Of a stretch of DNA of 64,000 nt, positions 38,196 through 55,157 are shown piece after piece. The DNA lies in contig NZ_CP049253.1 in NCBI RefSeq assembly GCF_011046975.1, positions 1,364,001 through 1,428,000 of the forward strand. Direction: 5' to 3'. Each line of letters begins with the position of its first letter. Within the stretch, counting starts at the first letter, position 1. Origin of the DNA: Microbacterium amylolyticum (GTDB taxonomy: Bacteria > Actinomycetota > Actinomycetes > Actinomycetales > Microbacteriaceae). Made by a program: the position numbers and the translations under genes. The notes below the pieces were generated by a model. That model did no database searches and was not told where the DNA came from. It saw only the letters and a list, made by a program, of their open reading frames with translations.

Positions 38196-39431
38196 ATGCC
38201 ACACAAGTCTTCCCTCGCACGGTCTATTGATCGAGTTGTCACATCTGGGTCCTGCACCGGATGCGGCGCCTGCACCTTGCTAGCCGATGGAATATCGATG
38301 AGAGAAAGTGCTGATGGTTTTCTCCGACCAGTCGCCGAAAATGGCCACACGAAGAGTAGCCGCGACACGATCAAGCAGTTCAATCGTGTATGTCCAGGAA
38401 GACGCGTAAGCGCGCCAGTAGTCGAGGAAGGCGGGAGCCATCATGAAATTTTCGGACGCTATATCTCAGTGTGGCGCGCTTGGGCAAGTGATCCTGAGGT
38501 CCGCGAGCAAGGAAGCAGTGGAGGTGTCCTCACTGCGTTGACGGCATGGCTCGCTGATACCGGCCAGGTAACATCCACGCAAGCCGTTGCCGCGAGCACC
38601 TGCGCACCGAATCGGTCAGTTTCGGTGAGAATTACGACTCGTCAAGAAGCGCTGTCCGCGGCAGGTTCAAGATATGCTCCTGTCGCCGCTCTTGAGGGAA
38701 CGTCCCTCAGTTCCGAGAACGCACTGGTCGGAAAGCCATGTGAAATCGCTGCCGCACGCGCGATTACATCCGAAAGCCAGGGCTCCGCCCCTCTGATGCT
38801 CTCGTTCTTTTGCGCTGGGACCCCTAGCCAACACGCAACAGACTCGCTTGTGCGCAAGCTTGGACTTGAGACGAACAATCTCATGTCAATGCGTTATAGG
38901 GGCGGCGGATGGCCAGGTTACTTCACGGCAATAGATCCTGACGGCCGCGAAGAGTCCCTTTCGTACGCCGAGTCCTGGGGGGCGCATCTCGGGCGCGACC
39001 TTCAAATGCGATGCAAATTGTGCGTCGACGGCACTGGCGAAGCATCAGACATCGCCGTCGGAGATTTCTGGGAGACTGATAGCGCTGGTTATCCACTATT
39101 TTCGGAAGGGGACGGTGAGTCCGTGGCAATCGCGAGGACTCACCGGGGTGATGACGTTATCCGCCGGGCTGCCGAAGCTGGGGTGATTATCGTGGAAGAG
39201 GTCACCCTCGATGACCTCATCGCTGTGCAGCCGCTCCAGGTAAAACGACGACGGACGCTAGCAGGACGCCTCCTCGGCCGCCGCCTCGCTGGCTATCGTG
39301 TACCGCACTACCCTGGCTACAGTCTCGCCCCTCACTTCACCAAGCGAGCAGTCCTAAATCTCAGAACGGCTGCCGGCACGTTTCTACGTTCAGTCAAGTC
39401 ACGTGTTCGGGGCCGAAGCGCAGACCGCTAG
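38196..39431 (+). CDS. FrhB-like (coenzyme F420 hydrogenase/dehydrogenase beta subunit family) protein
   Basis: 411 residues. Near the N-terminus SCTGCGAC gives the start of an iron-sulfur ligand set, FNRVCPG adds one Cys, and MRCKLCVDGTGEASDIAVGDFW in the second half carries another CxxC and the family's GDxW block. SSGGVLTALTAWL is the conserved N-domain signature. In exopolysaccharide loci such proteins often neighbour polysaccharide pyruvyl transferases; the reaction is not established. Residues expected for a second ferredoxin cluster are reduced. It is alone on the plus strand, between the IS3 element and the wzx-like gene. Confidence 0.85.
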   Translation: MPHKSSLARSIDRVVTSGSCTGCGACTLLADGISMRESADGFLRPVAENGHTKSSRDTIKQFNRVCPGRRVSAPVVEEGGSHHEIFGRYISVWRAWASDPEVREQGSSGGVLTALTAWLADTGQVTSTQAVAASTCAPNRSVSVRITTRQEALSAAGSRYAPVAALEGTSLSSENALVGKPCEIAAARAITSESQGSAPLMLSFFCAGTPSQHATDSLVRKLGLETNNLMSMRYRGGGWPGYFTAIDPDGREESLSYAESWGAHLGRDLQMRCKLCVDGTGEASDIAVGDFWETDSAGYPLFSEGDGESVAIARTHRGDDVIRRAAEAGVIIVEEVTLDDLIAVQPLQVKRRRTLAGRLLGRRLAGYRVPHYPGYSLAPHFTKRAVLNLRTAAGTFLRSVKSRVRGRSADR

Positions 39432-39442
39432 CGTTGGGCAGA

Positions 39443-40729
39443 TCAGCCTCGCTTTACTAAGCGCTTGATAGCTTCTTGGAGATCGTTCGGCATTGGCACA
39501 AACGCACGAAATGGGGCTTTGAGCCCTCCGCTGAGCATCAACATCATGACAAAATAGCCCATTGTTGAAGCAAGCGCCGCGCCAACCGCACCGAGAATCG
39601 GTCCCAGAACAATCAACGATCCGACTGAAACGACAAGCGCGACCGTTTGCGATATGGACATGCGCCCGCCACGTCCTTCAGCTGCGAGTGCCATCGAGAT
39701 CACGTACCCGCTCGTCATTGCGAATCCTCCTATTGAGGCTACCCACACTACCGGTACGGCATTCGCAAAGCTCGGGCCAAACAGCAGCGGCACCACAACA
39801 GGTGTCGCAAGGCAAAGCAACGGGAAGCAAACAAGCGCAAGCGCGATTGCTGAACGCGTCGCTTGTTGCTGGAGTTTACGGCGCGGCTCCCCAGCTTCCG
39901 CTCGGACGATCGGCGTGAAGTAGGCCGCACCAAGTGCCTGTCCGAAAGCAAGCGGAATTGTCACAATCGTCGTGGCTACAGCATAGTAGCCAGCCTGCGT
40001 CGCTCCGATCAGTGGCAAAGCAATGGCCTGATCCATCCGGTTAGTCGCTGTCTCTGCGAGAGAAGAACCAGAGAAACGCAATCCCTCACGCGCAAGGCTC
40101 GGAATCTCCCGCCAAGCACCCTGCCAAGAAGCGCGCACAAGACACAGGCCTACAATGCATGCCAGCACATGCCCACACACGTAGGCAATCAGAACCGTCC
40201 CTGTGGAAGCGCTATCCGATAACCATAACGCGAGCACCACCACAAGGTAAGAGACTGGGGGCGTGAGCTGAATCAACGCGATGGCGCGGTATCTCGACTG
40301 CGCTACGAGTACACTGACGTCGCAGGTCCAACTCACGACGACGGGCGCCAAAAGTACACTCATCGTTGCCACGAGCGCGGCCAGCGGCTGAAAAGTTGAA
40401 AACATCGTAAGATGCAGCGTGACGGATATCGGAATGGCTCCGACAAATCCGAGCAATGCGATGATTCGCGCGGATGCCACGATGCGGGCGCCAGCTGGCA
40501 TAGCCGCCCGGCGACGAACGGCTAGCGGAACACCGAAAGCCAAAACGACGGGAACAATGTGAAAGATCGCGATGACAGCGGCCGTCTCCCCCCGTCCCGC
40601 AGGGCCAATTGCGCGCGCAACGATCGGCGCAGAGACTAGCGCCAATCCTGCTGAGAAGATCCGGGCGAAGGCAAGCAAGGAGGGGCTATCTTCGGCGATA
40701 CTTCCAAGCGCGCGGCGAAACCAACTCAT
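39443..40729 (-). CDS. Polysaccharide flippase (Wzx/MOP superfamily)
   Basis: 428 residues, about twelve membrane segments (for example LALVSAPIVARAIGPAGRGETAAVIAIF at the N-terminus, which includes the family's early Gly-rich motif). It should flip undecaprenyl-linked repeat units to the outside. Its start overlaps the stop of the pyruvyl transferase gene by 4 bases, so the two are one operon. Codon use is less GC-biased than in the ribosomal region, suggesting transfer. Confidence 0.87.
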   Translation of the reverse strand: MSWFRRALGSIAEDSPSLLAFARIFSAGLALVSAPIVARAIGPAGRGETAAVIAIFHIVPVVLAFGVPLAVRRRAAMPAGARIVASARIIALLGFVGAIPISVTLHLTMFSTFQPLAALVATMSVLLAPVVVSWTCDVSVLVAQSRYRAIALIQLTPPVSYLVVVLALWLSDSASTGTVLIAYVCGHVLACIVGLCLVRASWQGAWREIPSLAREGLRFSGSSLAETATNRMDQAIALPLIGATQAGYYAVATTIVTIPLAFGQALGAAYFTPIVRAEAGEPRRKLQQQATRSAIALALVCFPLLCLATPVVVPLLFGPSFANAVPVVWVASIGGFAMTSGYVISMALAAEGRGGRMSISQTVALVVSVGSLIVLGPILGAVGAALASTMGYFVMMLMLSGGLKAPFRAFVPMPNDLQEAIKRLVKRG

Positions 40730-41817
40730 GCGGTAAGCGAGATCTTCTTCAAAGCTTCAATGGAATCGGACAGCCTCGACTCAGCATTCGCTCTCAGCGC
40801 ATCGAGTTCATCGTCATATTCACCGCGCAGCAGCTCTTCCGCCTCTGCAACGATTCGTTCGACGGTCAAATCCTCGTCGCGTAGGTCATGGACGTGCGAC
40901 CATCCAATATCATTCATTAATGGCGCGAACTTGCGCGAATAGGCCAGAGGAAGCGACCTTGTCCCCACGGACAGGGCATTCAAACATGCGTGCATTCGCG
41001 ATCCGATAACCAACTCGGCCGACGCAACCATCCGCCTTGCTTCAGTTACATCAACGGGAACGAGTGCCTCCAGATTGAGCTCATCCGCCAACGCGCGACA
41101 AACTGGAACGTCATTGTCAGGGCTCTCGCTCTCAATCACATGGGAGAGTAGAGACACCGTCCGACCGTTTCGCGTCATTTCAGCGATTATCTCGCGTATC
41201 ACGCGCCGGTACTTCTCGTAGTCAACGTGATGGTTCTCTTGCCAGAGCAGCCCAGAGACGTTGAGCAAGACATCCCGCTTCTCGGAGACATTTGGAACTG
41301 GGAGCGCAAAAACAACATCAGTGGATGACACATCAGGACGGCGACCAAGCAATTCTGAAACGTAGTCACTACTTGCGCGGTCTCGCGAGTGCACCTGGTT
41401 CGCGCGCTGCATTACATAGCGACCGATCGCCTTGCCCCACCAGGTATTGAACGGACCGATTGTTTGCGGCCCAAGCACTACTGGAACGTTCAAGGACGCG
41501 GCTAATCTGTTGGCGTTCGCCATCCACAAAAGACGCTGGGCACCATAAATATCTGCGAAACTATCGCCTGCCCCTGAGTCAATAATGAGATCATACGATG
41601 AAAGCTTCACTTTCAGATCCCCCCGCCGCTTCCCCAAGTCGGCTACAATCGCTCGATTCCCAAAGGCGACATCCGAGTCACCACGGCCATAGTCCTGAAA
41701 ATCCACTTGGACGTCGCTACCCCACGCCCGACGCGCTAGCTCCTTCATGCCATACGCCAGCACCTGCACACCAAGATTCGCCGAACGGCTATCCGCCCAA
41801 AGAACAAGAACTCGCAA
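40726..41817 (-). CDS. Polysaccharide pyruvyl transferase family protein
   Basis: 363 residues from a TTG at 41817 with GGGAGAGG upstream; frames upstream of it would collide with the divergent acyltransferase gene. The N-terminus LRVLVLWADSRSANLGVQVL matches PS_pyruv_trans proteins, followed by DLIIDSGAGDSFADIYG, VVLGPQTIGPF and RDRASSDYV. The second half has the conserved VIGSRMHACLNALSVGT with its Arg-x-His. The enzyme transfers pyruvate from PEP to form a ketal on a glycan, adding negative charge. It is the first gene of the pyruvyl transferase-wzx operon. Confidence 0.88.
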   Translation of the reverse strand: MRVLVLWADSRSANLGVQVLAYGMKELARRAWGSDVQVDFQDYGRGDSDVAFGNRAIVADLGKRRGDLKVKLSSYDLIIDSGAGDSFADIYGAQRLLWMANANRLAASLNVPVVLGPQTIGPFNTWWGKAIGRYVMQRANQVHSRDRASSDYVSELLGRRPDVSSTDVVFALPVPNVSEKRDVLLNVSGLLWQENHHVDYEKYRRVIREIIAEMTRNGRTVSLLSHVIESESPDNDVPVCRALADELNLEALVPVDVTEARRMVASAELVIGSRMHACLNALSVGTRSLPLAYSRKFAPLMNDIGWSHVHDLRDEDLTVERIVAEAEELLRGEYDDELDALRANAESRLSDSIEALKKISLTA

Positions 41818-41920
41818 CGTCGCCTCTCCCCTCCCGGAAAAGTGACGTGAGAAACCGCGCCACTGATGACCCATCCTACGGCCATCCACCTGCGAAGCTA
41901 CTCCCGACAGAGCGAGAGCT

Positions 41921-42922
41921 GTGACGAGCCGATCCGATGCCAAGGTAAGATCCGTGGTCGTGCCTACCTCAACTGAACGCATGCAGTGGATGGACTTCCT
42001 CCGTGGGGTCGCGATTGTGTTGGTCATCGCTTGGCACGCCCCGGGAATCCCTTCTATGCTCGGGAGCCCGATGCCTGACTGGTTGCGGACGGTGAACGAC
42101 TTCCTCCTGCCATACCGCATGCCTACCCTCATGTTTCTGTCGGGGCTTCTCGTGCCACGCTCATTGGAAAAGCCGCTGACACGATACTATTGGGGAAAAT
42201 ACCAGTTAGTCTTGTGGCCTTACCTTATTTGGTCAGGAATCCACATGGTTCAACATATCCCGGCCGGTCCGATTACGAATCCTCAAAATTGGATCGCAAC
42301 TGGATACTTGTGGTTTCTCTTCTTCATCGGAGTTTACTACTCCATAGCCCCTTTCATGAGGTATTTTCCTGCCTGGTGCCCGCCCACATTCTTTGCGATC
42401 ATGGCTCTCGCACTACCCGAAGGGCACCCAGAACGCTTCGCATACTTCGCCATATTCTTTTTTAGCGGGGCACTCGTTGCGACTCATGCCAAGCTATTGG
42501 ACGCAATTTTGCGCGGCGGATGGGTGATAGGCGGGGCGGGTCTGGTTGCAGTTGCATTTGGAACACTCGCGACACGAGTCGATACGCAGTATGAGACATG
42601 GGGCGCACCATTTAGTATTTGCGGAATCGCCGTCGCGATATATCTTGCATCACGAGTGAATGGCCGTAGCTGGACAATCCCGTTTCGTTTTATCGGGCGT
42701 TCGTCCCTTGTGTTCTACGTCGCTCATTTTCCAATCATTTACGGAGCTTGGACACTATTCACGCTCTGGAGCGACGCTCGCCCTGACACCATCTCCATCG
42801 CGCTATTTTTCCTTGCTTTGAGCGCCTGCACCGGGCTTGCATACTTCCAGAATATACCGCCAATAAAATGGCTCTTCCGCGCGCCCAGCTTTCCCAGCAT
42901 TAGCACAAAGAAGTGGAAGTAA
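41921..42922 (+). CDS. Acyltransferase 3 family membrane protein
   Basis: 333 residues from GTG at 41921; ATG at 41981 (MQWMDFLRGVAIV) is an alternative. About ten membrane segments. The family start MDFLRGVAIVLVIAWHAPG carries the catalytic His, and YRMPTLMFLSGLL contains the conserved Arg. The end lacks an SGNH domain. It probably O-acetylates a surface polysaccharide. Its 3' end is followed by IS1380 copy 1 after about 30 bases. The region is noticeably AT-richer than the ribosomal part. Confidence 0.88.
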   Translation: MTSRSDAKVRSVVVPTSTERMQWMDFLRGVAIVLVIAWHAPGIPSMLGSPMPDWLRTVNDFLLPYRMPTLMFLSGLLVPRSLEKPLTRYYWGKYQLVLWPYLIWSGIHMVQHIPAGPITNPQNWIATGYLWFLFFIGVYYSIAPFMRYFPAWCPPTFFAIMALALPEGHPERFAYFAIFFFSGALVATHAKLLDAILRGGWVIGGAGLVAVAFGTLATRVDTQYETWGAPFSICGIAVAIYLASRVNGRSWTIPFRFIGRSSLVFYVAHFPIIYGAWTLFTLWSDARPDTISIALFFLALSACTGLAYFQNIPPIKWLFRAPSFPSISTKKWK

Positions 42923-42953
42923 TACGAGATATCTCTATTTGCGATCTCCCTAC

Positions 42954-44626
42954 CCTCGGGCTTTCATCGTTGAAGCGCTCTGAGCTCGTGTCCTGGACGT
43001 GAAAAGTGCCCCTGATCTGGAAGAATAAGACTTGTCTAGAGCACTTGTTCGTCCAGTTCGAGAAGCACCTTCAAGGTGAAGAATACCGGAGCCTATCCCC
43101 GCGCCCATGTTGATACTGCGGCGGTGTCCGCGGCCGGTCATGCGGGCGGGGTGTTGCTGACCGAAACGATCCGCGCGACGGGCCTGGACCGGATCCTGTC
43201 GGAGAGCCTTGGGCCGTGGCGGAAGCCGCTGTCGACGCATGACCCGGCGAAAGTACTGCTTGATCTCGCGGTCACGCTCGCTCTCGGCGGTGACGCGCTC
43301 TCTGATATCGCGACCGTTCGTGCCGAGCCGGGTGTTTACGGGCTGGTCGCGTCGGATCCGACGGTGTCCCGCACTGTCACCGCGTTGGCCGCGGATGCTG
43401 ACCGGGTGCTCGCCGCGATTGACACCGCCCGGCAAGCGGCGCGCGAGCAGGCGTGGGCCCTGGCCGGCGGACACGCACCCCAGGCCGGCATCAGCGCGGA
43501 TGCGCCGTTGGTGATCGATCTGGACGCTACGCTGCTGACCGCGCACTCGGAGAAGGAGCAGGCCGCGGCGACCTTCAAACGCGGGTTCGGGTTCCACCCG
43601 CTGATCGCGTTCGCCGACCACGGCCCCGCAGGTTCCGGGGAAATGCTGGCCGTGAAGCTCCGCCCGGGGAATGCGGGCTCGAACACCGCGGCCGACCACA
43701 TCGCCGTCACGAAGGCGGCGCTCGCGCAGCTCCCGGACGGGAGCCCGCGTCCCGGGAAGAGCGTCCTGATCCGCGCCGATGGTGCCGGCGGGACAAAGGA
43801 CTTCCTGTCCTGGCTGACGAAACAGCGCCTGTCGTACTCGGTCGGTTACACCCTCCCGTTCCATACCCCCGAGCTCTACAAACTCATCACCGACCACAAA
43901 GCCTGGGAGGCCGCGCTCGACGCCGACGGCGACGTCCGTGACGGGGCCGCCGTCGCGGAGCTGACCGGGCTACTCGACATGACCGGCTGGCCCGCCGGGA
44001 TGCGGGTCATCGTCCGGCGGGAACGTCCGCACCCCGGTGCGCAACTCCGCTTCGACGACGTCGACGGTTACCGGCTCACCGCATTCGCGACCAACAGCAA
44101 GCGGGGCCAGCTGCAACAGCTTGAGCTCCGCCACCGGCGCCGCGCACGCTGCGAGGACCGCATCCGCAACACGAAAGACCAAGGCCTCCGCAACCTCCCC
44201 CTCCACGGATTCGCTCAGAACCGGATCTGGACCCAGGTCGTCGCCCTCGCCAGCGAGATCACCGCCTGGACAGGCCTCCTCGCTCACCCCGGACACGAAG
44301 CCCGACGCTGGGAACCCAAACGACTCCGGCACCGCCTCTTCACAATCCCCGCGACCCTCGCCCACCACGGGAGGCGCACGATCCTGCACCTCTCGAACCG
44401 GTCACGCTGGGCAAAGATCGCCCTCACAGCGATCCGCCGGATCCGCGCACTCCCCGCACCCAGCGGCTGACACCGCCGACCTTGCTGACCATCACGACCC
44501 GAGGGCCCGGAGAACCGCCCCGCAGCGCCACGCGGCGCTCTGTCGCACCCTCATGCCAGAATCAGGCCCAAGCGGGCGCACCGACGCCCAACCGGCCACA
44601 CTCAAGAGACCGACGAAAGATCGAGG
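42954..44626 (+). mobile_element. IS1380-family insertion sequence, copy 1
   Basis: About 1670 bp, identical as far as I can follow to the copy at 49959-51631. Ends: CCTCGGGCTTTCATCG at the left and, on the complement of the right end, CCTCGATCTTTCGTCG. Both copies share five more bases (CCTAC) to the left of this, so the boundary could be 42949. The flanking four bases (CTAC left, TTAG right) do not form a target duplication. Confidence 0.88.
43076..44470 (+). CDS. IS1380-family transposase, copy 1
   Basis: 464 residues from GTG at 43076. It is a DDE_Tnp_1-type transposase: the N-terminal helical domain ends near residue 130; VIDLDATLLTAHSEKE carries the first Asp, LIRADGAGGTKDFLSWL the second, and the C-terminal LELRHRRRARCEDRIRNTKDQGL holds the Glu with the conserved RxxxEDRIR pattern of the family. 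Reading frame intact, so the element should be active. Confidence 0.93.
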   Translation: MKNTGAYPRAHVDTAAVSAAGHAGGVLLTETIRATGLDRILSESLGPWRKPLSTHDPAKVLLDLAVTLALGGDALSDIATVRAEPGVYGLVASDPTVSRTVTALAADADRVLAAIDTARQAAREQAWALAGGHAPQAGISADAPLVIDLDATLLTAHSEKEQAAATFKRGFGFHPLIAFADHGPAGSGEMLAVKLRPGNAGSNTAADHIAVTKAALAQLPDGSPRPGKSVLIRADGAGGTKDFLSWLTKQRLSYSVGYTLPFHTPELYKLITDHKAWEAALDADGDVRDGAAVAELTGLLDMTGWPAGMRVIVRRERPHPGAQLRFDDVDGYRLTAFATNSKRGQLQQLELRHRRRARCEDRIRNTKDQGLRNLPLHGFAQNRIWTQVVALASEITAWTGLLAHPGHEARRWEPKRLRHRLFTIPATLAHHGRRTILHLSNRSRWAKIALTAIRRIRALPAPSG

Positions 44627-44693
44627 TTAGAATTGTGAGTTAGATTCTCTCGTCGGCGTCACGCCGCTCAAGCCGAAGGAACGCAGGAGAACT

Positions 44694-45581
44694 ATGAAAG
44701 TTCAGGCAGTCGTCGTAAACTACCAAAGCTCAGACTATGTTCGCGCTTGCCTTAATTCACTGGCGCTTGCCGGTATCGACAGAGTGAGCGTGGTCGATAA
44801 TTATTCGACCGCACATGAAAGACTAGCTATCGAAGAGGTGATACGCCAATCCCCGATCGAGGCAGCATTTACGCCACTCGAAGAGAATATTGGCTTCGGA
44901 GCAGGAGTGAACCGCGGATTCGCGGCGCTAGGAAGCACCCCAGAAGATCTCGTCTGGATCGTGAATCCTGACGCCGAAGTCAATTCGGACGCACTTTCGT
45001 CTCTTGCCGGTCGCATCGTTGACGGTGATGCGGATATCGTATCCCCATTGATCCTCACTGGTTCGCGGGCTCAACCGGTCGTATGGTTTGGCGGCGGTTC
45101 GATTATCGAGTCAGAGGGCCGCACAAAGCACGTTCATTTTGGAGAACGACTGGATGGCTTGACGGGCCTAACGCCCGCCGATTTCCTCACGGGAGCCGCG
45201 CCGATGATGCGATCCCGCGTCTTTGACCAAATGGGAGGATTTCGTGAAGATCTTTTTCTGTACTGGGAAGACGCAGATTTCTCTCGACGTGCAGCCGCTG
45301 CAGGGTTGCGGCTCGCTGTAGATCTTGATGCGCATATTTGGCATGCCGTCGGAGGTTCTGGTGATCGTTCTGGGAAAAGTGCCGTGTACTATTATCACAT
45401 GCAACGCAACCGAATGTTGGTGGCTGCACCATGGACATCTCGCTGGAACCTGCTTCTAGGGCGGGGCCTAAAAGAAACCCTGAAGCTCTCCCTCCGCCCA
45501 CTCAAGGAACCGCAAGCACGCCTCGTAAAATTGAAGTCAGGGTTCCGGGGCCTCCGCGATGGTTTCCGCCGCTCACGGTAG
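44694..45581 (+). CDS. GT2 rhamnosyltransferase-like glycosyltransferase
   Basis: 295 residues with GGAGAACT before the ATG at 44694. GT-A fold: VQAVVVNYQSSDYVRAC, VVDNYSTAHE, ENIGFGAGVNRGF, VNPDAEV (DxD variant), and FLYWEDADFSRRAAAAG, the ED base motif of rhamnosyltransferase-like GT2 enzymes. With rmlABCD 15 kb away, a rhamnosyl transfer onto a lipid-linked unit is likely but not proven. It lies inside the block between the two IS1380 copies and starts 67 bases after copy 1. Confidence 0.9.
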   Translation: MKVQAVVVNYQSSDYVRACLNSLALAGIDRVSVVDNYSTAHERLAIEEVIRQSPIEAAFTPLEENIGFGAGVNRGFAALGSTPEDLVWIVNPDAEVNSDALSSLAGRIVDGDADIVSPLILTGSRAQPVVWFGGGSIIESEGRTKHVHFGERLDGLTGLTPADFLTGAAPMMRSRVFDQMGGFREDLFLYWEDADFSRRAAAAGLRLAVDLDAHIWHAVGGSGDRSGKSAVYYYHMQRNRMLVAAPWTSRWNLLLGRGLKETLKLSLRPLKEPQARLVKLKSGFRGLRDGFRRSR

Positions 45582-45707
45582 CAAAAACGGACTTTCTCCT
45601 GCGATCGTATCACCACACCATTATCTTATGTACTGATATGACGAAGGTTGCGCTATTGCATTAAGTGAGAAAGATGGATCGTGATTTTGACTATGTGGGT
45701 TATCGGC

Positions 45708-47018
45708 TCATCGCATTCCAGAGTGTAGGTGGGGTCTGAATCCTCCGGACTCGAGCAGCGATCTGGCGATGTAGTTCGTGAGGTTGCGGAAGCCGAGGGC
45801 GGATCCGCGGAGATGCTCGAGGCGGCCGTTGATGGCCTCGGTCGGTCCGTTGCTGGTCCCGGGGCGGTCGAAGAACGCGAGGATGTCGGCGGCCCGCTTC
45901 TTCAGTGTCCGGCCGAGCTTGCGGAGTTCGACCAAGCGGGCCGGGACGCCGGTGGCGACGGCGTCGATGACCGCCTGCATGGCCTGCTTCCCGAGCTTCT
46001 TGTCGGGTTCCCGGTAAGCGGCGATCATGCGCTGGTAGATGCCCCAGGTCGCTTCGACCTCGACATGCTGCTCGTCGGCGAACAGCACCTGGATTCGCGT
46101 GACCTGCTTCTCGGTGAGGAGGGCATCACCGGTGTGCAGGGTGCGGCGGGCTTTGTAGAGCGGGTCGTTCTTCATCCCGCGCCTGCCGTGGAGGTCCTGC
46201 TGGACGCGCCGCCGGCAGACGTCGAGCGCGTCGTCGGCGAGGCGGACGACATGGAACGGGTCCATCACCGCGACCGCTTTCGGGAGCTCTTCGGCGGCGG
46301 CGGTCTTGAATCCGGTGAACCCGTCCATCGCGACGACCTCGATCCCGTCCCGCCACGACTTCGGGCGTCCCGCGAGCCAGTCCTTGAACACGGCCTTCGA
46401 TCGCCCCTCAACCATGTCCAACAAGCGTGCGGGGCCGATCTTGTCGCGGTTCGGGGTGAGGTCGATGATCACGGTGACGTATTTGTCGCCGAACCTTGTG
46501 TGCCGCCAGACATGCTCGTCGGCACCGATCACCCGGACCCCGTCGAACCGGTGGGAGTTGTTGATCAGGCGTCGGCGGCCCTCGGCGAGGACCGCGCTGT
46601 TCGCGGTGTGCCAAGACACCCCCAGCCCTGCTGCGACGCGGGTCACGGTGAGATGGTCGACGACGATCCCGGCGAGAGCCCATCCCAGTCCACCGCGGGA
46701 GATCTTCGCCCGAGACGGCGCAGCCCTCGTGGTGTCTTCCCGCCAAGTCCGCCGGCAGTGATCACACCGGAACCGGCGCACCCGGAGCAGGAGCGTCGTG
46801 GGCCGGTGGCCGAACGGCGCGTGCGCGAGCCGCCGGACGACCGTGTCCCGGACCACCCCTTCGGCACCGCATTTCCGGCACCACGGGTCCGGCTCGGCGA
46901 CGCGGCACTCGATCACCGCGCGCTCAGGCTCGAGTCGTTGGCCGACGGCTTGAAGGCCGAGTTCGTCGAGGCGGCAGAAAGTGGTCAGGCACGGTGCGGC
47001 GAAGGTAGCGTTGAACAA
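45708..47018 (-). CDS. ISL3-family transposase
   Basis: 436 residues from TTG at 47018. The N-terminal zinc finger is C-x2-C...C-x2-C (DPWCRKCGAE, RFRCDHCRRTW), followed by an HTH (LTVTRVAAGLGVSWHTAN) and the DDE_Tnp_ISL3 core: VIGADEHVWR, AMDGFTGFKTA, DPFHVVRLADDALD, and a C-terminal GPTEAINGRLEHLRGSALGF. The frame is intact. The stop codon lies inside the left terminal repeat. Confidence 0.93.
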   Translation of the reverse strand: MFNATFAAPCLTTFCRLDELGLQAVGQRLEPERAVIECRVAEPDPWCRKCGAEGVVRDTVVRRLAHAPFGHRPTTLLLRVRRFRCDHCRRTWREDTTRAAPSRAKISRGGLGWALAGIVVDHLTVTRVAAGLGVSWHTANSAVLAEGRRRLINNSHRFDGVRVIGADEHVWRHTRFGDKYVTVIIDLTPNRDKIGPARLLDMVEGRSKAVFKDWLAGRPKSWRDGIEVVAMDGFTGFKTAAAEELPKAVAVMDPFHVVRLADDALDVCRRRVQQDLHGRRGMKNDPLYKARRTLHTGDALLTEKQVTRIQVLFADEQHVEVEATWGIYQRMIAAYREPDKKLGKQAMQAVIDAVATGVPARLVELRKLGRTLKKRAADILAFFDRPGTSNGPTEAINGRLEHLRGSALGFRNLTNYIARSLLESGGFRPHLHSGMR

Positions 47019-47019
47019 C

Positions 47020-47073
47020 GTCGAGGTCTTTCAGATGGACAGCTTAGGAACTTCCATCCTGGAAGACCTCGAC
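47020..47073. repeat. Inverted repeat in the ISL3 promoter region
   Basis: GTCGAGGTCTTTCAG at 47020-47034 pairs with CTGGAAGACCTCGAC at 47059-47073 with one mismatch, immediately upstream of the transposase start. It may limit transposase expression. Confidence 0.55.
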
Positions 47074-47299
47074 ACCTATCCGGCGATCGCCGCGCGGCCC
47101 CGACCTACACTCTCAACTGCGAAGAGCCGGACAACCTCGCGGCGGGGCTCGGGATCGCCGAGAAGGTCGTCGCGTCATTCTCGTCGTGTCCGATCCCGGA
47201 GATCGCGAGGCTGGGACGGACGTTGAAGCGCTGGAAGGACGCGTTCCTCGCGTACTTCACGACCGGGCGCGCGAACAACGGCGGCACCGAGGCGATCTG

Positions 47300-47598
47300 T
47301 GAGTCTGGCTCTGGCTGATCTGGGATCGGCTGGTCAGGATGGATACCGGTCGTGTCGAACCGGGTGTGACTCTCGAAGCAATTGGCCCGCAGCTTGCGGT
47401 GTCTTCCCGTTGAATTGTCCGCTCGGTGCGGCGCGGCCGGCGCCGTCCGGCCCACCTCGGTGACCTCATCAGGAGACTGCCCGACCCTCCGGTCGTGGCC
47501 CATCACAGATTCGCCCCGAAGTGACCTCTTCCCGGACCGGCGCCGGCCGTTCAGCGACCGTGACCATGTCCGTCTCGAGGAGAGGAGCGTCGATCGCC
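47300..47598 (+). ncRNA. Likely location of the IS110 bridge RNA
   Basis: The 300 bases between the IS110 left end and the transposase start carry no gene. IS110-family elements are known to encode a structured bridge RNA in a non-coding end that guides target and donor recognition. I see no fold I can draw with certainty, so this is inference from family knowledge and position. Confidence 0.35.
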
Positions 47599-48669
47599 AT
47601 GGCTATCGTCGCGCATGCTCGTCCGTTCGTCATCGGCGTGGACACCCACGCCCGCAACCACGCCGTCTCAATTCTCGCTTGCCCGACCGGCGAGATCGTT
47701 GATGAGGCCCAGTTTCCAGCTACCGCCGCTGGCCTGTCTCGGGCCGTGTCGTGGGCCGGGCGCCGCACTGGCGGTGACGTCACTGTGCTCTGGGTGATCG
47801 AGGGCACCGGTACCTACGGTGCTCGTCTGCGCGCAGTAGCCGCGGACAACGGATACACGGTCGTCGAGGCTCCGCGGATGAACGCCCGCGCGAACCGCAC
47901 GATCGGCAAGTCTGACCCGCTCGATGCACGCCGTATCGCTGCTGCAGCCCTCCCGCTGCACGAGACGCAGCTGCGCGAACCGCGCGCCGACGATGGGGTC
48001 CGCGCGGCAGTCAAGGTGCTGCTCGCCTCTCGCGACCACATGAGCACCGAGCGCACCGCGACGATCAACGCGCTTACCGCGCTGCTGCGCGTCGTCGACC
48101 TCGGCATCGACGCTCGCCGCCCGCTCACCCAGGCCCAAATCGACGCAACTGCCGCATGGCGGGCCCGCCATGAAGCCCTCGCCACAGCGACCGCACGTGG
48201 CGAGGCCACCAGGCTCGGCAAACGGTTCGCTGCGCTCGACAAGGAGCTCAAGGACATCACCAAGCGCATCACAGACCTTGTTCGCCAGAGCCCCGCTGGT
48301 GGCCTGCTCGACCAGCCCGGCATCGGCCCGGTCACCGCCGCCGTCGCGTTGACGTCCTGGTCGCATCTGGGTCGGATCAGATCCGAGGCTGCGTTCGCCA
48401 GCCTCGCCGGCGCCAGCCCAATCCCCGCGTCCTCGGGCAACACCGTGCGGCACCGCATCAACCGCGGCGGTGACCGCCGTCTGAACCGCGCCCTCCACAT
48501 GGCCATCGTCACTCGCATGCGCATGGACCCAAGAACTCGCGCCTACGTCGAGCGCCGCACCGCTGAAGGACGCACCCTCCGCGAAATTCGTCGCTGCCTG
48601 AAGCGATACCTCGCCCGCGAGATCTACCGCCACCTCACCACCGCAGCCCGCGCCCAACTCGCCGCTTGA
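47599..48669 (+). CDS. IS110-family transposase (DEDD recombinase)
   Basis: 356 residues from the ATG at 47599 with AGGAGAGGAG upstream. The N-terminal RuvC-like DEDD domain: FVIGVDTHARNHAVS (Asp), WVIEGTGTYG (Glu), KSDPLDARRIA (Asp). The C-terminal transposase_20 domain has LLDQPGIGPVTAAVAL, and ASLAGASPIPASSGNTVRHR with the catalytic Ser in the family's S-G region. It is intact. Confidence 0.93.
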   Translation: MAIVAHARPFVIGVDTHARNHAVSILACPTGEIVDEAQFPATAAGLSRAVSWAGRRTGGDVTVLWVIEGTGTYGARLRAVAADNGYTVVEAPRMNARANRTIGKSDPLDARRIAAAALPLHETQLREPRADDGVRAAVKVLLASRDHMSTERTATINALTALLRVVDLGIDARRPLTQAQIDATAAWRARHEALATATARGEATRLGKRFAALDKELKDITKRITDLVRQSPAGGLLDQPGIGPVTAAVALTSWSHLGRIRSEAAFASLAGASPIPASSGNTVRHRINRGGDRRLNRALHMAIVTRMRMDPRTRAYVERRTAEGRTLREIRRCLKRYLAREIYRHLTTAARAQLAA

Positions 48670-48787
48670 CAAACATAGGAGATTCAACGGCATCATCGAG
48701 CTCCACCGACGCCTGGCCCGCGGGTTCCGCAACCGAGACAACTATCGACTCCGCATGCTCCTCGCCGCAGGCGGCCTCACAACCTGA

Positions 48788-48811
48788 CCCCTACCGAATG
48801 TCCCAAGAGCC
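48788..48811. repeat. Right terminal repeat of the decayed ISL3 element
   Basis: On the complement this reads GGCTCTTGGGACATTCGGTA, then GGGG, matching the GGCTC(T/A)T start and GTAGG of the other ISL3 ends. It follows the decayed transposase stop directly and marks the old element's right end. Confidence 0.65.
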
Positions 48812-48825
48812 ACATATGCATCGCC

Positions 48826-48831
48826 TATAAT
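48826..48831 (+). promoter_or_regulatory. Candidate -10 box for the acyltransferase in the IS1380 block
   Basis: A perfect TATAAT, 52 bases upstream of the ATG at 48883. No good -35 is seen at 17 bases (CCAAGA). It lies just outside the ISL3 end. Confidence 0.45.
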
Positions 48832-48882
48832 CGATGCACGCCACGCGAACGACACTGCGATATTTAGGATTCTGGAGAATTT

Positions 48883-49905
48883 ATGACAAGAATCACGACG
48901 TCTAGGTATGCGTGGGTTGATGCTGCACGAGCATTTGCGATAGTTCTCGTCGTTCTCGATCATTCGCTTAACTGGCTCACGCCAGTCGGCCTTACAGCGC
49001 CCTGGTGGCACGACATGAAGCACCTATTTACCTCGATGCGCATGCCGCTTCTCTTCACAGTATCAGGGATTTTTGCAATCAAGTGGGTGGCCGCGCCGTG
49101 GCATTCATTACTCACCAAGAAAGTGCAATTCTTTATCTGGATATTTTTAATCTGGGCTGCTATCGGTGCTCTTGTTCTTCCATTAGGTGAAGCTGTGCAA
49201 GGAAATGATCGGACGCTGATATCACGAATCGGAGTTTTTGTGCTTGCCCCGGTGCGACCTACGGGAGAGCTTTGGTTCATTTGGGCGCTCGTATTGTATT
49301 TCATCGCAGTTAGACTTATGTGCCGAGTTCCGATCGCCGTTCAGCTAGTCCTCGCGTCCGTGATTGGGGTGGTTGGCTGGGTCTTGCCTGTGATAAACGT
49401 TGGCTGGTCCGGGGCGCCGAAGTATTTCTTCTTCTTCCTGGTAGGAATATATCTGCGCGAGAAGATCTTCCGTTTGCAAGGACAGCTGGCAGGCCCGTGG
49501 GGCGCAGTTGCGTTTGGAAGCTGGGCTGTACTCGCTGTCGTAGTCTGGCGCGTTGCGAACAATTCGCCATGGGTTGGTCTGCTGAGCGTGCTTGGGGTCG
49601 TAGCGGGCATCGCCATCGCCGGGCAACTTGCACGAGTTCCTATGATTCACCAAGTCGGGCAGAGCACTCTGCCGATCTATCTTGCACATACTCCCATCAT
49701 TATCCTGGTCGTTTGGGCGCTTTGGAAGTTGAATTTCGAAGTGATTGACTGGATGCCGGTAATTTTCCCGTTCGGAGTTGCGATCATTGCGATTGCAGGA
49801 AGTCTGGGGTTGGAGCGCGTCGTACGCAATAGTCCGTTCAAGTACATTTTTGAGATGCCACCCGTGCTTGGTCGGCTCCCTTTCGGTAGCATCGGTCGTA
49901 GCTGA
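48883..49905 (+). CDS. Acyltransferase 3 family membrane protein
   Basis: 340 residues with TCTGGAGAAT before the ATG. About ten membrane segments. RYAWVDAARAFAIVLVVLDH carries the family's catalytic His, and MRMPLLFTVSGIF the Arg. The C-terminal half ends in STLPIYLAHTPIIIL. There is no SGNH domain. A role in acylating a surface glycan is likely. It is AT-richer than its surroundings and lies between two identical IS1380 copies, together with the GT2 at 44694. Confidence 0.88.
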   Translation: MTRITTSRYAWVDAARAFAIVLVVLDHSLNWLTPVGLTAPWWHDMKHLFTSMRMPLLFTVSGIFAIKWVAAPWHSLLTKKVQFFIWIFLIWAAIGALVLPLGEAVQGNDRTLISRIGVFVLAPVRPTGELWFIWALVLYFIAVRLMCRVPIAVQLVLASVIGVVGWVLPVINVGWSGAPKYFFFFLVGIYLREKIFRLQGQLAGPWGAVAFGSWAVLAVVVWRVANNSPWVGLLSVLGVVAGIAIAGQLARVPMIHQVGQSTLPIYLAHTPIIILVVWALWKLNFEVIDWMPVIFPFGVAIIAIAGSLGLERVVRNSPFKYIFEMPPVLGRLPFGSIGRS

Positions 49906-49920
49906 CTTGCTGCGTATAAG

Positions 49921-49953
49921 CGGGCATCCGGAACGAACCGGTGACCGTTTCGG
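49921..49953. repeat. Orphan end of an IS3-family element, cut off by IS1380 copy 2
   Basis: GGGCATCCGGAACGAACCGG followed by TGACCGTTTCGGC matches the end of the IS3 element at 38107 (complement) in about 29 of 35 positions. No transposase follows: IS1380 copy 2 starts within six bases. Confidence 0.65.
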
Positions 49954-49958
49954 CCTAC

Positions 49959-51631
49959 CCTCGGGCTTTCATCGTTGAAGCGCTCTGAGCTCGTGTCCTG
50001 GACGTGAAAAGTGCCCCTGATCTGGAAGAATAAGACTTGTCTAGAGCACTTGTTCGTCCAGTTCGAGAAGCACCTTCAAGGTGAAGAATACCGGAGCCTA
50101 TCCCCGCGCCCATGTTGATACTGCGGCGGTGTCCGCGGCCGGTCATGCGGGCGGGGTGTTGCTGACCGAAACGATCCGCGCGACGGGCCTGGACCGGATC
50201 CTGTCGGAGAGCCTTGGGCCGTGGCGGAAGCCGCTGTCGACGCATGACCCGGCGAAAGTACTGCTTGATCTCGCGGTCACGCTCGCTCTCGGCGGTGACG
50301 CGCTCTCTGATATCGCGACCGTTCGTGCCGAGCCGGGTGTTTACGGGCTGGTCGCGTCGGATCCGACGGTGTCCCGCACTGTCACCGCGTTGGCCGCGGA
50401 TGCTGACCGGGTGCTCGCCGCGATTGACACCGCCCGGCAAGCGGCGCGCGAGCAGGCGTGGGCCCTGGCCGGCGGACACGCACCCCAGGCCGGCATCAGC
50501 GCGGATGCGCCGTTGGTGATCGATCTGGACGCTACGCTGCTGACCGCGCACTCGGAGAAGGAGCAGGCCGCGGCGACCTTCAAACGCGGGTTCGGGTTCC
50601 ACCCGCTGATCGCGTTCGCCGACCACGGCCCCGCAGGTTCCGGGGAAATGCTGGCCGTGAAGCTCCGCCCGGGGAATGCGGGCTCGAACACCGCGGCCGA
50701 CCACATCGCCGTCACGAAGGCGGCGCTCGCGCAGCTCCCGGACGGGAGCCCGCGTCCCGGGAAGAGCGTCCTGATCCGCGCCGATGGTGCCGGCGGGACA
50801 AAGGACTTCCTGTCCTGGCTGACGAAACAGCGCCTGTCGTACTCGGTCGGTTACACCCTCCCGTTCCATACCCCCGAGCTCTACAAACTCATCACCGACC
50901 ACAAAGCCTGGGAGGCCGCGCTCGACGCCGACGGCGACGTCCGTGACGGGGCCGCCGTCGCGGAGCTGACCGGGCTACTCGACATGACCGGCTGGCCCGC
51001 CGGGATGCGGGTCATCGTCCGGCGGGAACGTCCGCACCCCGGTGCGCAACTCCGCTTCGACGACGTCGACGGTTACCGGCTCACCGCATTCGCGACCAAC
51101 AGCAAGCGGGGCCAGCTGCAACAGCTTGAGCTCCGCCACCGGCGCCGCGCACGCTGCGAGGACCGCATCCGCAACACGAAAGACCAAGGCCTCCGCAACC
51201 TCCCCCTCCACGGATTCGCTCAGAACCGGATCTGGACCCAGGTCGTCGCCCTCGCCAGCGAGATCACCGCCTGGACAGGCCTCCTCGCTCACCCCGGACA
51301 CGAAGCCCGACGCTGGGAACCCAAACGACTCCGGCACCGCCTCTTCACAATCCCCGCGACCCTCGCCCACCACGGGAGGCGCACGATCCTGCACCTCTCG
51401 AACCGGTCACGCTGGGCAAAGATCGCCCTCACAGCGATCCGCCGGATCCGCGCACTCCCCGCACCCAGCGGCTGACACCGCCGACCTTGCTGACCATCAC
51501 GACCCGAGGGCCCGGAGAACCGCCCCGCAGCGCCACGCGGCGCTCTGTCGCACCCTCATGCCAGAATCAGGCCCAAGCGGGCGCACCGACGCCCAACCGG
51601 CCACACTCAAGAGACCGACGAAAGATCGAGG
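49959..51631 (+). mobile_element. IS1380-family insertion sequence, copy 2
   Basis: Same orientation and sequence as copy 1, exactly 7005 bases further on. It is flanked by CTAC at the left and CTAA at the right, so no perfect target duplication. It follows an orphan IS3 end. Confidence 0.88.
50081..51475 (+). CDS. IS1380-family transposase, copy 2
   Basis: 464 residues, identical to the protein at 43076-44470, including the DLDATLLTAHSEKE and RADGAGGTKDFLSWL catalytic blocks. The lack of any difference over the whole element points to recent duplication or gene conversion. Confidence 0.93.
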   Translation: MKNTGAYPRAHVDTAAVSAAGHAGGVLLTETIRATGLDRILSESLGPWRKPLSTHDPAKVLLDLAVTLALGGDALSDIATVRAEPGVYGLVASDPTVSRTVTALAADADRVLAAIDTARQAAREQAWALAGGHAPQAGISADAPLVIDLDATLLTAHSEKEQAAATFKRGFGFHPLIAFADHGPAGSGEMLAVKLRPGNAGSNTAADHIAVTKAALAQLPDGSPRPGKSVLIRADGAGGTKDFLSWLTKQRLSYSVGYTLPFHTPELYKLITDHKAWEAALDADGDVRDGAAVAELTGLLDMTGWPAGMRVIVRRERPHPGAQLRFDDVDGYRLTAFATNSKRGQLQQLELRHRRRARCEDRIRNTKDQGLRNLPLHGFAQNRIWTQVVALASEITAWTGLLAHPGHEARRWEPKRLRHRLFTIPATLAHHGRRTILHLSNRSRWAKIALTAIRRIRALPAPSG

Positions 51632-51878
51632 CTAAAAGGAGGGCGGCTGGATTATCCGGTGGCGACCCCCGTCCGGCAAGGCAGATCCCAGGCAACGCCT
51701 GATCGCCCATGAGCTTCGACCGCGCGTCCGAGAAAAATCCGGCGTGACTGCAATCATCTGCCATAAACTCCGGCCAGGATCTCTATCCTGGCGAAACGCA
51801 TCTCGGACAGGTGAATGCGAATGGACTATGCACGGCCCTATCATTCTAGTGGCGCTCGGGTAAAGAGAGAAAAGGTCT
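51632..51878. other. About 250 bases with no gene seen
   Basis: Between IS1380 copy 2 and the 3' end of the wzy-like gene. No family-like frame, no element end and no strong hairpin was recognised. Confidence 0.4.
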
Positions 51879-53183
51879 CTACTGCTTTCTGGCCTGCGCC
51901 TCACGCCAAGCCCGGCGAGGGGATACCCGCGACCCGTCGTCGGCACCGTGAGAACTGTTGGCCTGATTCACACCCGCCGTTGCCATCGCGAGCACGAGCG
52001 CGAGTGGCACCGCAGACTGTGGAGCATTGAGGAGATTGTCGAACGCACCGTAAAATGCACACGCAACGGCTATCACGCAAACCATACCCCGGAATTCGTG
52101 CGCCACACCCCGGAACGCAAACCAAAATAGAAATGCAAACATCGCCAAAAAGACGATAAATAGCGGCGCACCAATATCTACGAGCAAACTTACATATGCG
52201 CTATGAGGCGAAACAAACGATCGCATAATCGTTGCATTTCCCGACTCTTCAGCGAGGACAGTCGCACCCCCGGGTCCAAACCCAGTCCAGGGATGCTCCT
52301 GAAATCTACGCATAAAGTAAGACCAGGCTTCAGTTCGGCCGGAGAAGCCCAGAATGCCATGTGCGGAAGCAGTCGACCTCTGCATGAACAGAGGAATAAA
52401 AAGCATCGCACCAGCAACGAGACCAACAACGCCAACTCCGATTCCAACTCGCCACTGCCGTAGGCGATAGAGGACAGCGACTATCAACATTGCGACGAAT
52501 ACCAGACCTGCAGCGAGCGTCGCTCCACGCGTTCCGGTAAGCGCACAAATTCCCGCATTCGCTACCGAAACCCAAAGCCCCCAAGGACTACCCAAGCTCC
52601 ACAGCCAGGCTGCGCCGATGACACCGAATAGAGCCAGGGACGCGAGATACGCCGGCGGCATTCCAGCGGCAAGTCGAAGTGCTCCAGTGTATTCATGCAT
52701 GATGAAGATCGTGTGACCAGAAATGCTTAATGGTACACTGATCAACACAGCAATAATTGGCGCAAATGCAAGCGAGACAGCTCGCGATCGAACATTCACT
52801 TGACGCCAATCCACAAAGAAAACACACCAGGCGTACACGTAACCCGCAGTTCCACGAATGAGAACTAGATCACCTGGCCCTGCATCGCGCAGGTCCAACA
52901 ACGATGCTATGAAGAAAGCGGTTGCAAAAACACCGAAAAGAACAAGCACTGGCCAGGGTGGGATTCGAAAACCGACCAGAATTCCCGCCACAGCGACACA
53001 TATAAATACAAATATCTTCTGTAGCATCGCACCGTTGTCGATGCCGAACAAAGACTGGATGGCGCCGTAGCCGGTGAGGGCAGGCAACAACACCAGCAAT
53101 GGAAGTAAGGCTCCGAGTGGACCCGCGAAAACTGTCCGCAGACGCCTGTGCTGGTACGCAATCCTTTGCAGTGCTGCGGTCAT
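51879..53183 (-). CDS. O-antigen ligase/polymerase family protein (Wzy-like)
   Basis: 434 residues with GAAAGGAC before the ATG at 53183. About eleven membrane segments. The large outer loop and following segment contain FSGRTEAWSYFMRRFQEHPW, GFGPGGATV and SPHSAYVSLLVDIG, typical of the Wzy_C domain with its conserved Arg, Gly and His. It polymerises or ligates lipid-linked repeat units outside the membrane. It lies 2 bases after the GT4 gene in the operon GT28-GT4-wzy. No cognate chain-length regulator was seen. Confidence 0.87.
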   Translation of the reverse strand: MTAALQRIAYQHRRLRTVFAGPLGALLPLLVLLPALTGYGAIQSLFGIDNGAMLQKIFVFICVAVAGILVGFRIPPWPVLVLFGVFATAFFIASLLDLRDAGPGDLVLIRGTAGYVYAWCVFFVDWRQVNVRSRAVSLAFAPIIAVLISVPLSISGHTIFIMHEYTGALRLAAGMPPAYLASLALFGVIGAAWLWSLGSPWGLWVSVANAGICALTGTRGATLAAGLVFVAMLIVAVLYRLRQWRVGIGVGVVGLVAGAMLFIPLFMQRSTASAHGILGFSGRTEAWSYFMRRFQEHPWTGFGPGGATVLAEESGNATIMRSFVSPHSAYVSLLVDIGAPLFIVFLAMFAFLFWFAFRGVAHEFRGMVCVIAVACAFYGAFDNLLNAPQSAVPLALVLAMATAGVNQANSSHGADDGSRVSPRRAWREAQARKQ

Positions 53184-53185
53184 TT

Positions 53186-54160
53186 TTACGTGTCCTTTCT
53201 AATCACTCCACCTAGGTGCTCCAGTTGCGCGGCTTGCTGAGCAACGATACTTGCTCTCCTCGTCACAATCCTGGCAGCTAACGCCTTCGCATCCGCAATC
53301 GCTTCGTTCACCTGTGCGCCGATGGAAGCGGAAGTTGGTTCAATATAAAGCGCCGCATCTCCGAAGAAGTCCCGGAGGACCTTCGTTCCTGATGTCACCA
53401 GGGCAACTCCGCTGCCTATGGCTTCATAGCCGACGCGCTGCATCGTGTTCTCCTGCGTCGTCACGGCGACCATGACCGTGGCATTGGCGACGAGTCGCCC
53501 ATAGTCCTCGTTCGTCACGAAGCCCGGGAACACAACGTTGTCTGGCGCGGCGTCACGCACCGCATGCGGAGGTCGCCCAGTGAGAACCCATGTCACGTCT
53601 GGATAGTCGCGTGCAGCCTGAAGAATCTCATCGACCGGTTCATCGAACGCGTAGGCCAAGGGTACGAGCGCGAAATCGTTTTTAATCACGTCAACTAGCC
53701 CTGGATCATCGGGCGACTCGTCCGAGACCGCAACGGACGTGATCATGTCATGCATCTCGAGGGCTTCAACGCCATATTCACGAGTGCGTTGCGCAAGATC
53801 CGCGCCCGTCACCACTGCGGCACCGCGCTTCCGCAGGATGCGCATCGTGAGCCCCAGCGCCCATTTCCATTTCGGGTCTGTGAAGACGCCGGTGTGCAGG
53901 TCGCCAATAATCTGCGTCGAACGCGGAGCTGACATTGCGACGCTCAGCAACGCAACCACGGGCGGTTGCATAACAACGACGCTGTTCGGCTTGCAATCCC
54001 GGAGAATCCGAGCTGTCTCGCGCCAGGCTCGCAAATAGCGGAGAGGTGCCGGGCCGCTCCCACCCGTCACATAGAACGAATCAATCCCCAATGCATCAGC
54101 GAGGCCCGCACTACGTCCGTGGTGCCGAATCCAACTAATGAAAATCGCGTCACTGGTCAC
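53186..54160 (-). CDS. GT4-like glycosyltransferase
   Basis: 324 residues from the GTG at 54160, six bases after AGGAGG; the ATG at 54166 is too close to that site. It has a GT-B fold: the N-domain includes NSVVVMQPPVVALLSVAM and DLHTGVFTDPKWKW. The C-domain has VTWVLTGRPPHAVRD, VVFPGFVTNEDYGRLVANATVMVAVTTQ and YEAIGSGVALVTSGT, the GT4 donor-binding block, with E in YEAIG at the usual place. It overlaps the upstream gene by 11 bases. Confidence 0.85.
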   Translation of the reverse strand: MTSDAIFISWIRHHGRSAGLADALGIDSFYVTGGSGPAPLRYLRAWRETARILRDCKPNSVVVMQPPVVALLSVAMSAPRSTQIIGDLHTGVFTDPKWKWALGLTMRILRKRGAAVVTGADLAQRTREYGVEALEMHDMITSVAVSDESPDDPGLVDVIKNDFALVPLAYAFDEPVDEILQAARDYPDVTWVLTGRPPHAVRDAAPDNVVFPGFVTNEDYGRLVANATVMVAVTTQENTMQRVGYEAIGSGVALVTSGTKVLRDFFGDAALYIEPTSASIGAQVNEAIADAKALAARIVTRRASIVAQQAAQLEHLGGVIRKDT

Positions 54161-55157
54161 GATCATCCTCCTGATCGGTGGCGTCTGTGCTCGACACAAC
54201 GACTGATGCCGCCGTCTCGAACGTCCGGCGCGACGGGTTATCAAGATCCAGGCTCAACGCCAAACCGCGAGCGGCAACGACCTCCGCGATGAACTGCTGA
54301 TGATCGTCAACATGCTCACTATGCGCTCCCCGACGCACGGCGACGATCGGTGATTTCCCGAGCTCGAGCGACGCAAGAATCGACCCGACTCCCGCGTGAG
54401 TGACGATTACGTCCGACTCTGCCATCAACCGGTTCATCTCTTCGCCCGGAAGTTCCGCGTGCACCGCGCCCGGAAGGTCCGAACGCTCCGTCACACCCAG
54501 TTGCCAGGTCACTTCGTCGGTCGGCTCCAGCACCTTCAACACGGCATCAACAAGACGGTCGAAACGGTATGGGCGAATGGTCCCCAGTGTGACGAAGATC
54601 TTCCGAACGTCGTGCTTGGATTCCGCGGCACGGGAGTCAAAACTGTCAAGGATCGTGCCCGTGTAGCTCCAGCTCCCACCTTCCCATGAGGGGTACTGCG
54701 TATAAGTGCGGATGCGTGGAGCCGCACGCATAATCTTCCCGGTCAGACTCGGCCCCTGTGAGCGTGCGAGACTCTCGATATAAACCACCGGGACTTTTCC
54801 AGTCAAGGCGACCATTGGCAGCCCGAAGAAGCCAATAGCGGCCCCCGTCGACACCACGAAGTCGAAATGTTCGGCCTTAGCCGTGCGCCGGATCTGCTTG
54901 GCCGCACGGACGGCAGCGCGCATGTCGCGGGGCGCAACGTAGTCAACGTGCACAACACGACGGCCCGCGAGCAACGAACGCGTCTGCGGTACGTCGAAGG
55001 TAATCCACATCGATTGCTCGTTCACGCCAAGTAGGCGCTCGATACGATGCGCCTGCGCTACGTGCCCACCAGATGAGGCGACCCAGAGAATTTTCGGCCT
55101 GGTTCCGAAAACGTCGGCGAAGCGTGGATCGCCCACCAGAAGCTGTTTGTCAGACAT
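54150..55157 (-). CDS. Alg14/Alg13-like fused glycosyltransferase (PssD-PssE type)
   Basis: 335 residues. Residues 20-165 resemble Alg14/PssD: ILWVASSGGHVAQAHRIERL, then FDFVVSTGAAIGFFGLPMVA and VVYIESLARSQGPSLTG. Residues 185-310 are a GT28 C-domain like Alg13/PssE: IFVTLGTIRPYRFDRLVDAV, VIVTHAGVGSILASLELGKSP and RRGAHSEHVDDHQQ. In yeast and many bacteria these are two proteins; here they are one chain. It should add the second sugar to the lipid-linked primer. It is the first gene of the GT28-GT4-wzy operon. Confidence 0.87.
   Translation of the reverse strand: MSDKQLLVGDPRFADVFGTRPKILWVASSGGHVAQAHRIERLLGVNEQSMWITFDVPQTRSLLAGRRVVHVDYVAPRDMRAAVRAAKQIRRTAKAEHFDFVVSTGAAIGFFGLPMVALTGKVPVVYIESLARSQGPSLTGKIMRAAPRIRTYTQYPSWEGGSWSYTGTILDSFDSRAAESKHDVRKIFVTLGTIRPYRFDRLVDAVLKVLEPTDEVTWQLGVTERSDLPGAVHAELPGEEMNRLMAESDVIVTHAGVGSILASLELGKSPIVAVRRGAHSEHVDDHQQFIAEVVAARGLALSLDLDNPSRRTFETAASVVVSSTDATDQEDDRDQ

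What the first reader, a model, noticed from the sequence alone, without database searches (positions are those of the whole stretch)
42949..51631. Two identical IS1380 copies bracket a 5.3 kb exopolysaccharide block
Copies 42954-44626 and 49959-51631 lie in the same orientation, 7005 bases apart, and appear identical. Between them are a rhamnosyltransferase-like GT2, an acyltransferase and other insertion sequences. This is the form of a composite transposon, or of a unit that can be lost or multiplied by recombination between the copies. It would change surface-glycan structure in one step. Flanking bases do not give matching target duplications, so the order of events is open.
Basis: partly seen in the sequence, partly recalled or inferred. 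Interest (0 to 1): 0.75.

Follow-up and report, generated by a model that had tools for sequence, protein, structure and literature searches.

The report
Twin insertion sequences flanking sugar-coat genes
Two identical copies of a common kind of jumping gene lie on either side of two surface-sugar genes in a Microbacterium chromosome; the layout could let the genes be lost or moved, but it is an ordinary kind of arrangement and nothing seen here shows that the block has moved.

Summary
Window 42949-44626 and 49954-51631 are identical over 1678 bases, 7005 apart, same orientation: complete 1673-bp IS1380-family elements plus five shared bases, CCTAC. Of the 5.33 kb between them, 45704-48787 is other IS DNA; only a GT2 and an acyltransferase are exopolysaccharide (EPS) genes. 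Their G+C (53-55%) is like that of flanking EPS genes (53-61%), not of the ISs (68-69%), so they look like locus genes hit by ISs. Relatives show 4-bp target duplications, mostly YTAR (14 of 22 loci). Neither window copy has a matching pair, nor do the composite's outer ends (CTAC/CTAA). No second place for the block was found. 'Composite transposon' is thus a form, not a shown mechanism; 7005-bp loss by recombination is possible but untested. One new point: CTAC flanks [copy 1 + block] on both sides, as an ISEcp1-type one-ended unit would give, and in Tessaracoccus I found two such units of this IS group with CTAG/CTAG and TTAG/TTAG duplications. In the window no surrogate right end is recognisable, so this stays a minority reading.

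The parts
42949..42953 (.). CCTAC left of IS1380 copy 1 (last four bases CTAC)
   Evidence: same five bases at 49954-49958
42954..44626 (+). IS1380-family element, copy 1; transposase 43076-44470 (464 aa)
44627..44630 (.). TTAG, right flank of copy 1 (target-like YTAR, does not match its left flank)
44694..45581 (+). GT2 glycosyltransferase, EPS gene
   Evidence: Pfam PF00535; GC 55.1%
45704..47129 (-). ISL3-family element, transposase 45708-47018, inverted-repeat ends
47130..47297 (+). left piece of an ISL3 transposase remnant
47298..48683 (+). IS110-family element inside the ISL3 remnant; transposase 47521-48669
48684..48787 (+). right piece of the same ISL3 remnant, to its stop codon
48883..49905 (+). 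membrane acyltransferase (Acyl_transf_3), EPS gene
   Evidence: GC 52.9%
49954..49958 (.). CCTAC left of copy 2; repeat of 42949-42953
49959..51631 (+). IS1380-family element, copy 2; transposase 50081-51475
51632..51635 (.). CTAA, right flank of copy 2 (target-like, does not match its left flank)
38196..42922 (.). left flank, EPS genes: FrhB-type protein, flippase-like, pyruvyl transferase, first acyltransferase 41921-42922
51879..55157 (-). right flank, EPS genes: Wzy/ligase-type protein and two glycosyltransferases

Best explanation
A native, low-G+C exopolysaccharide locus of a Microbacterium chromosome has collected insertion sequences. Two recent copies of one IS1380-family element lie, in the same orientation, on either side of a GT2 and an acyltransferase gene; an ISL3 and an IS110 that sits in an ISL3 remnant fill the space between those two genes. 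Shown: identity of the copies, their ends, the interior content. Inferred: the two genes belonged to the locus before the ISs came, and the copies were made by separate insertions. The copies now form 1.7-kb direct repeats, so homologous recombination could delete 7005 bp (leaving one IS and no GT2 or second acyltransferase) or duplicate it. Movement as a composite transposon is possible in principle but has left no trace that I could find. The flanks need at least one event beyond two clean insertions: mutation, or recombination with a further copy such as the one whose remnant is on the 45.6-kb contig.
For: Identity over 1678 bases. GT2 and acyltransferase G+C 55.1 and 52.9%, flanking EPS genes 53.3-60.5%, the three transposase genes 67.7-69.3%. 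Both genes run on the strand of the flanking acyltransferase 41921-42922 and meet the opposite Wzy-type gene. Within the own genome the other matches to the block are to ISL3 and IS110 only. Neither copy nor the composite has a matching duplication, whereas 14 of 22 relatives do.
Against: EPS loci are often low in G+C (established knowledge), so a block imported from another EPS locus would look alike. No relative with the same locus was found: the left flank 38076-42948 has a DNA match at E<=1e-20 in 1 of 366 Microbacterium genomes, its own, so the order of genes before the ISs was not seen. Two independent insertions leave the shared, unusual CTAC (0 of 44 flanks in 22 relatives) to chance.
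Confidence: 0.58

Rival explanations
1. One-ended (ISEcp1-type) transposition: copy 1 moved together with DNA downstream of it, using its left end and a surrogate right end, and landed beside copy 2 (or copy 2 later used the duplicated target). CTAC on both sides of [copy 1 + block] is its duplication; TTAG right of copy 1 is a relic of its earlier site.
For: CTAC (CCTAC) repeats at 42949-42953 and 49954-49958; CTAC is absent from 44 flanks of 22 relatives. The same IS group does this elsewhere: in L114 (Tessaracoccus coleopterorum) and L124 (T. flavescens MAG) IS1380 plus several kb of passenger, 99% alike, lies between CTAG/CTAG and TTAG/TTAG while the IS's own right end is followed by CTAT. 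ISEcp1, also IS1380 family, is described as one-ended, with a surrogate right end matching as few as 4 of 14 bases (passages of PMC12116815; PMC12589106).
Against: No right-end-like sequence at the end of the supposed unit: best 7 of 16, reached by 87% of 5250 interior positions, against 13 of 16 and 0 of 6100 in L114. A separate 19-base score at the exact end gave 9 with CTAC and 7 with CCTAC as the duplication. With a CTAC duplication the unit ends in C, not the G thought important for ISEcp1. It also needs a landing exactly beside copy 2.
Confidence: 0.25
2. A true composite transposon that came in as one unit 42954-51631.
For: Two identical same-family copies bracket foreign-looking and EPS DNA; the outer flanks CTAC/CTAA differ by one base only.
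Against: The outer flanks do not match; with targets so alike three of four shared bases mean little. No second location in the own genome; G+C of the cargo equals that of the locus.
Confidence: 0.1
3. The right half of copy 1 and the block came by recombination with an IS1380 copy on the 45.6-kb contig.
For: The 179-base IS remnant there, 99% identical, has left flank TTAG, like the right flank of copy 1.
Against: TTAG is a frequent target (3 of the 14 matched duplications), so the match is weak; the remnant lacks its right part; no other similarity between that contig and the block was reported.
Confidence: 0.05

Closest known systems
Class I composite transposons (recalled)
   Same: Two same-family IS copies, same orientation, around unrelated genes
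   Different: No matching outer duplication and no second location found
ISEcp1 (ISEc9) transposition units, IS1380 family (passages of PMC12116815 and PMC12589106)
   Same: IS family; a short direct repeat at the left end of the IS and at the far end of the downstream DNA
   Different: 4-bp YTAR-type targets instead of 5 bp; no surrogate right end recognised in the window; a second full IS copy lies beyond
ISRer1-named IS1380 elements of Rhodococcus plasmids
   Same: 58.6-59.7% transposase identity over 99% of the query in the ISRer1-named rows shown
   Different: A distinct element. Closest in named genomes seen here: Microbacterium luticocti, 83% protein (one of its two copies has a TGA inside); a 90% relative is known from short metagenome contigs only (P0164)

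Membership tests
IS1380 family | IS1380 transposase | tested here: met
   NF033539 312.6 bits, cut-off 180
IS1380 family | Inverted-repeat ends | tested here: met
   CCTCGGGCTTTCATCG / CCTCGATCTTTCGTCG
IS1380 family | 4-5 bp target duplication | tested here: not met
   Met in 14 of 22 relatives but in neither window copy; membership rests on transposase and ends
Composite transposon | Two related IS copies around other genes | tested here: met
Composite transposon | Matching target duplication at the outer ends | tested here: not met
   CTAC / CTAA
Composite transposon | Block found at other places or seen to move | tested here: not met
ISEcp1-type one-ended unit | Direct repeat at IS left end and at far end of passenger | tested here: inconclusive
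   CTAC/CTAC present, but the second lies directly beside copy 2
ISEcp1-type one-ended unit | Surrogate right inverted repeat | tested here: not met
   7 of 16, chance level; ISEcp1 itself tolerates 4 of 14
Recombination-competent direct repeat | Long identical direct repeats | tested here: met
   1678 bases
Recombination-competent direct repeat | Observed excision or amplification | not testable with these tools
   No reads; one assembly reachable

The most novel reading that the evidence does not exclude
Actinobacterial IS1380 elements carry neighbouring genes by one-ended transposition as ISEcp1 does, and in this Microbacterium such an event placed a glycosyltransferase and an acyltransferase within a surface-polysaccharide locus, so that a single IS copy could remodel the glycan without any composite. 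The Tessaracoccus units support the general part; the window's CTAC repeat is only suggestive.
Probability: 0.25. Interest if true: 0.45.

Novelty: new member of a known kind. Interest (0 to 1): 0.3.

Why it matters
It gives a concrete deletion/duplication unit in a surface-polysaccharide locus that one PCR can check. More generally, the Tessaracoccus units indicate that IS1380 elements of actinobacteria, and not only ISEcp1, may carry downstream genes with one IS copy; searches for composite transposons would miss such units.

Tried and rejected
GT2 in viral contigs: two stretches matched a pattern, none encoded a relative. IS DNA in the plasmid collection, near mode: two short Streptomyces matches only. 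One acyltransferase as a recent duplicate of the other: 25% identity, so no. Promoter from the IS for the GT2: two sigma-70-like sites in 42850-51900 against 1.3 expected, neither placed to drive the GT2 from the IS end. ISL3 target duplication: the bases outside 45704 and 47129 do not match by eye.

Literature: IS1380 + one-ended + Rhodococcus and three of IS1380, Actinobacteria, TSD, YTAR returned no paper; this covers only that open-access library. IS1247/dhlB as another one-ended precedent is recalled; one search gave listings only. Microbacterium/exopolysaccharide/insertion sequence: listing only, none opened.

Survey of targets: 33 of the 55 loci were examined; 22 had both ends; L116 and L125 gave implausible lengths and were dropped; nine lacked an end. 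Of the 8 mismatched loci, L114, L115 and L124 carry passenger DNA past the right end, and L086 and L087 are the two M. luticocti copies. Several loci come from one genome (four from Brachybacterium epidermidis), so they are not independent.

The clusters of the GT2, the acyltransferase and the transposase each lie on 3 contigs, the longest 2,582,944 bases. That is not the contig held here (2,542,738), so another assembly exists that I could not read.

Full report
What is there. The two IS1380 copies are identical over 1678 bases (42949-44626 and 49954-51631), 7005 apart, in the same orientation. Their ends are set by two Microbacterium luticocti copies of 79% DNA identity: the element is 1673 bases, 42954-44626 and 49959-51631, with inverted-repeat ends and an intact 464-aa transposase. 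Five bases to the left, CCTAC, are shared too. The genome has contigs of 2,542,738 and 45,606 bases. The small contig is probably a plasmid (a ParA-like gene by my own reading, no family search); it holds a 179-base remnant of the IS, 99% identical.

The interior. Of 5327 bases, 45704-48787 (3084) is other IS DNA: an ISL3 at 45704-47129 and an ISL3 remnant split by an IS110 at 47298-48683. What is left is the GT2 44694-45581 and the acyltransferase 48883-49905 with short flanks. Both resemble the flanking EPS genes in composition and continue the strand of the flanking acyltransferase 41921-42922, so I take them for locus genes; this is inference, since no relative with the locus was found. 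The closest other GT2 is 70% identical, from a short metagenome contig, and the closest named one 61% (Pseudoclavibacter sp. RFBA6, best 120 of 227 listed). For the acyltransferase the highest identity is 45% (42 proteins, only the candidates sharing most words scored).

Target duplications. Of 33 relatives examined, 22 had both ends and 14 of those carry a perfect 4-bp duplication: CTAG 6, CTAA 4, TTAG 3, TTGA 1. The window copies read CTAC/TTAG and CTAC/CTAA. The left flanks {CTAC, CTAC} and the right flanks {TTAG, CTAA} share no member, so exchange between these two copies alone cannot restore the pairs; mutation or a further copy is needed. Mismatch is not rare in itself: 8 of 22 relatives, both M. 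luticocti copies among them. Because targets are so alike, a 4-bp match is weak evidence; CTAC, absent from all 44 flanks of the 22 loci, is the informative one, and it stands at 42950-42953 and at 49955-49958, on both sides of [copy 1 + block].

One-ended units in relatives. Three of the 55 loci (L114 Tessaracoccus coleopterorum, L115 Propionibacteriaceae bacterium P6A17, L124 T. flavescens MAG) share the IS1380 and several kb downstream at about 99%, with different left flanks. In L114 and L124 the shared DNA ends where CTAG and TTAG, the respective left flanks, recur. The units are 7934 and 6526 bases (L114 has an ISL3 insertion inside) and carry what reads as an ABC export module (my reading, no family search). 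A right-end-like sequence, 13 of 16, lies 11 bases inside the end. In L115 the match stops earlier, near the contig end, and cannot be judged. This is the pattern described for ISEcp1 (passages). In the window the same test finds 7 of 16, a chance value. I therefore give the one-ended reading 0.25.

Verdict. An IS-riddled EPS locus with a real, composite-like pair. Loss or duplication by homologous recombination is plausible and untested. The finding is a new example of a known kind; the more interesting lead is the one-ended movement of actinobacterial IS1380 elements.

Noticed in passing
window 47298-48683; L049; L144:1501-2887: The IS110 sits in an ISL3 transposase remnant exactly between the codons Ile and Asn of a conserved Thr-Glu-Ala-Ile-Asn-Gly motif; its 98% twin at C1:1731334-1732797 sits at the same codon of a different ISL3 (67-70% protein identity), and the closest plasmid relative (75%, Rhodococcus sp. 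p52) is followed directly by ISL3 residues 396-435 (82.5%). Five weaker plasmid relatives (64-68%) of the six fetched, out of 115 records, show no ISL3 at their ends. It looks like an IS110 group that targets ISL3 transposase genes; IS4321/IS5075 on Tn21 ends is a precedent seen as a title in the reference list of PMC11208160.
   Followed up: partly
L114:9882-17815; L124:5560-12085: IS1380 plus a passenger that reads as an ABC export module, bounded by CTAG/CTAG and TTAG/TTAG: ISEcp1-like transposition units in Tessaracoccus.
   Followed up: partly
L074:8850-12482 (45.6-kb contig C2): The IS1380 remnant at L074:9886-10064 lies between a zeta-toxin-like gene and a DNA-methylase-like gene, with a Fic-like gene beyond; names are my own reading of the ORFs.
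   Followed up: no
G000 C1, many places: Pieces or copies similar to the block's ISL3 DNA occur at about ten or more separate places of the chromosome, 71-87% identical; two decayed IS1380 relatives, 66-75%, lie near C1:856000 and C1:1628500.
   Followed up: no
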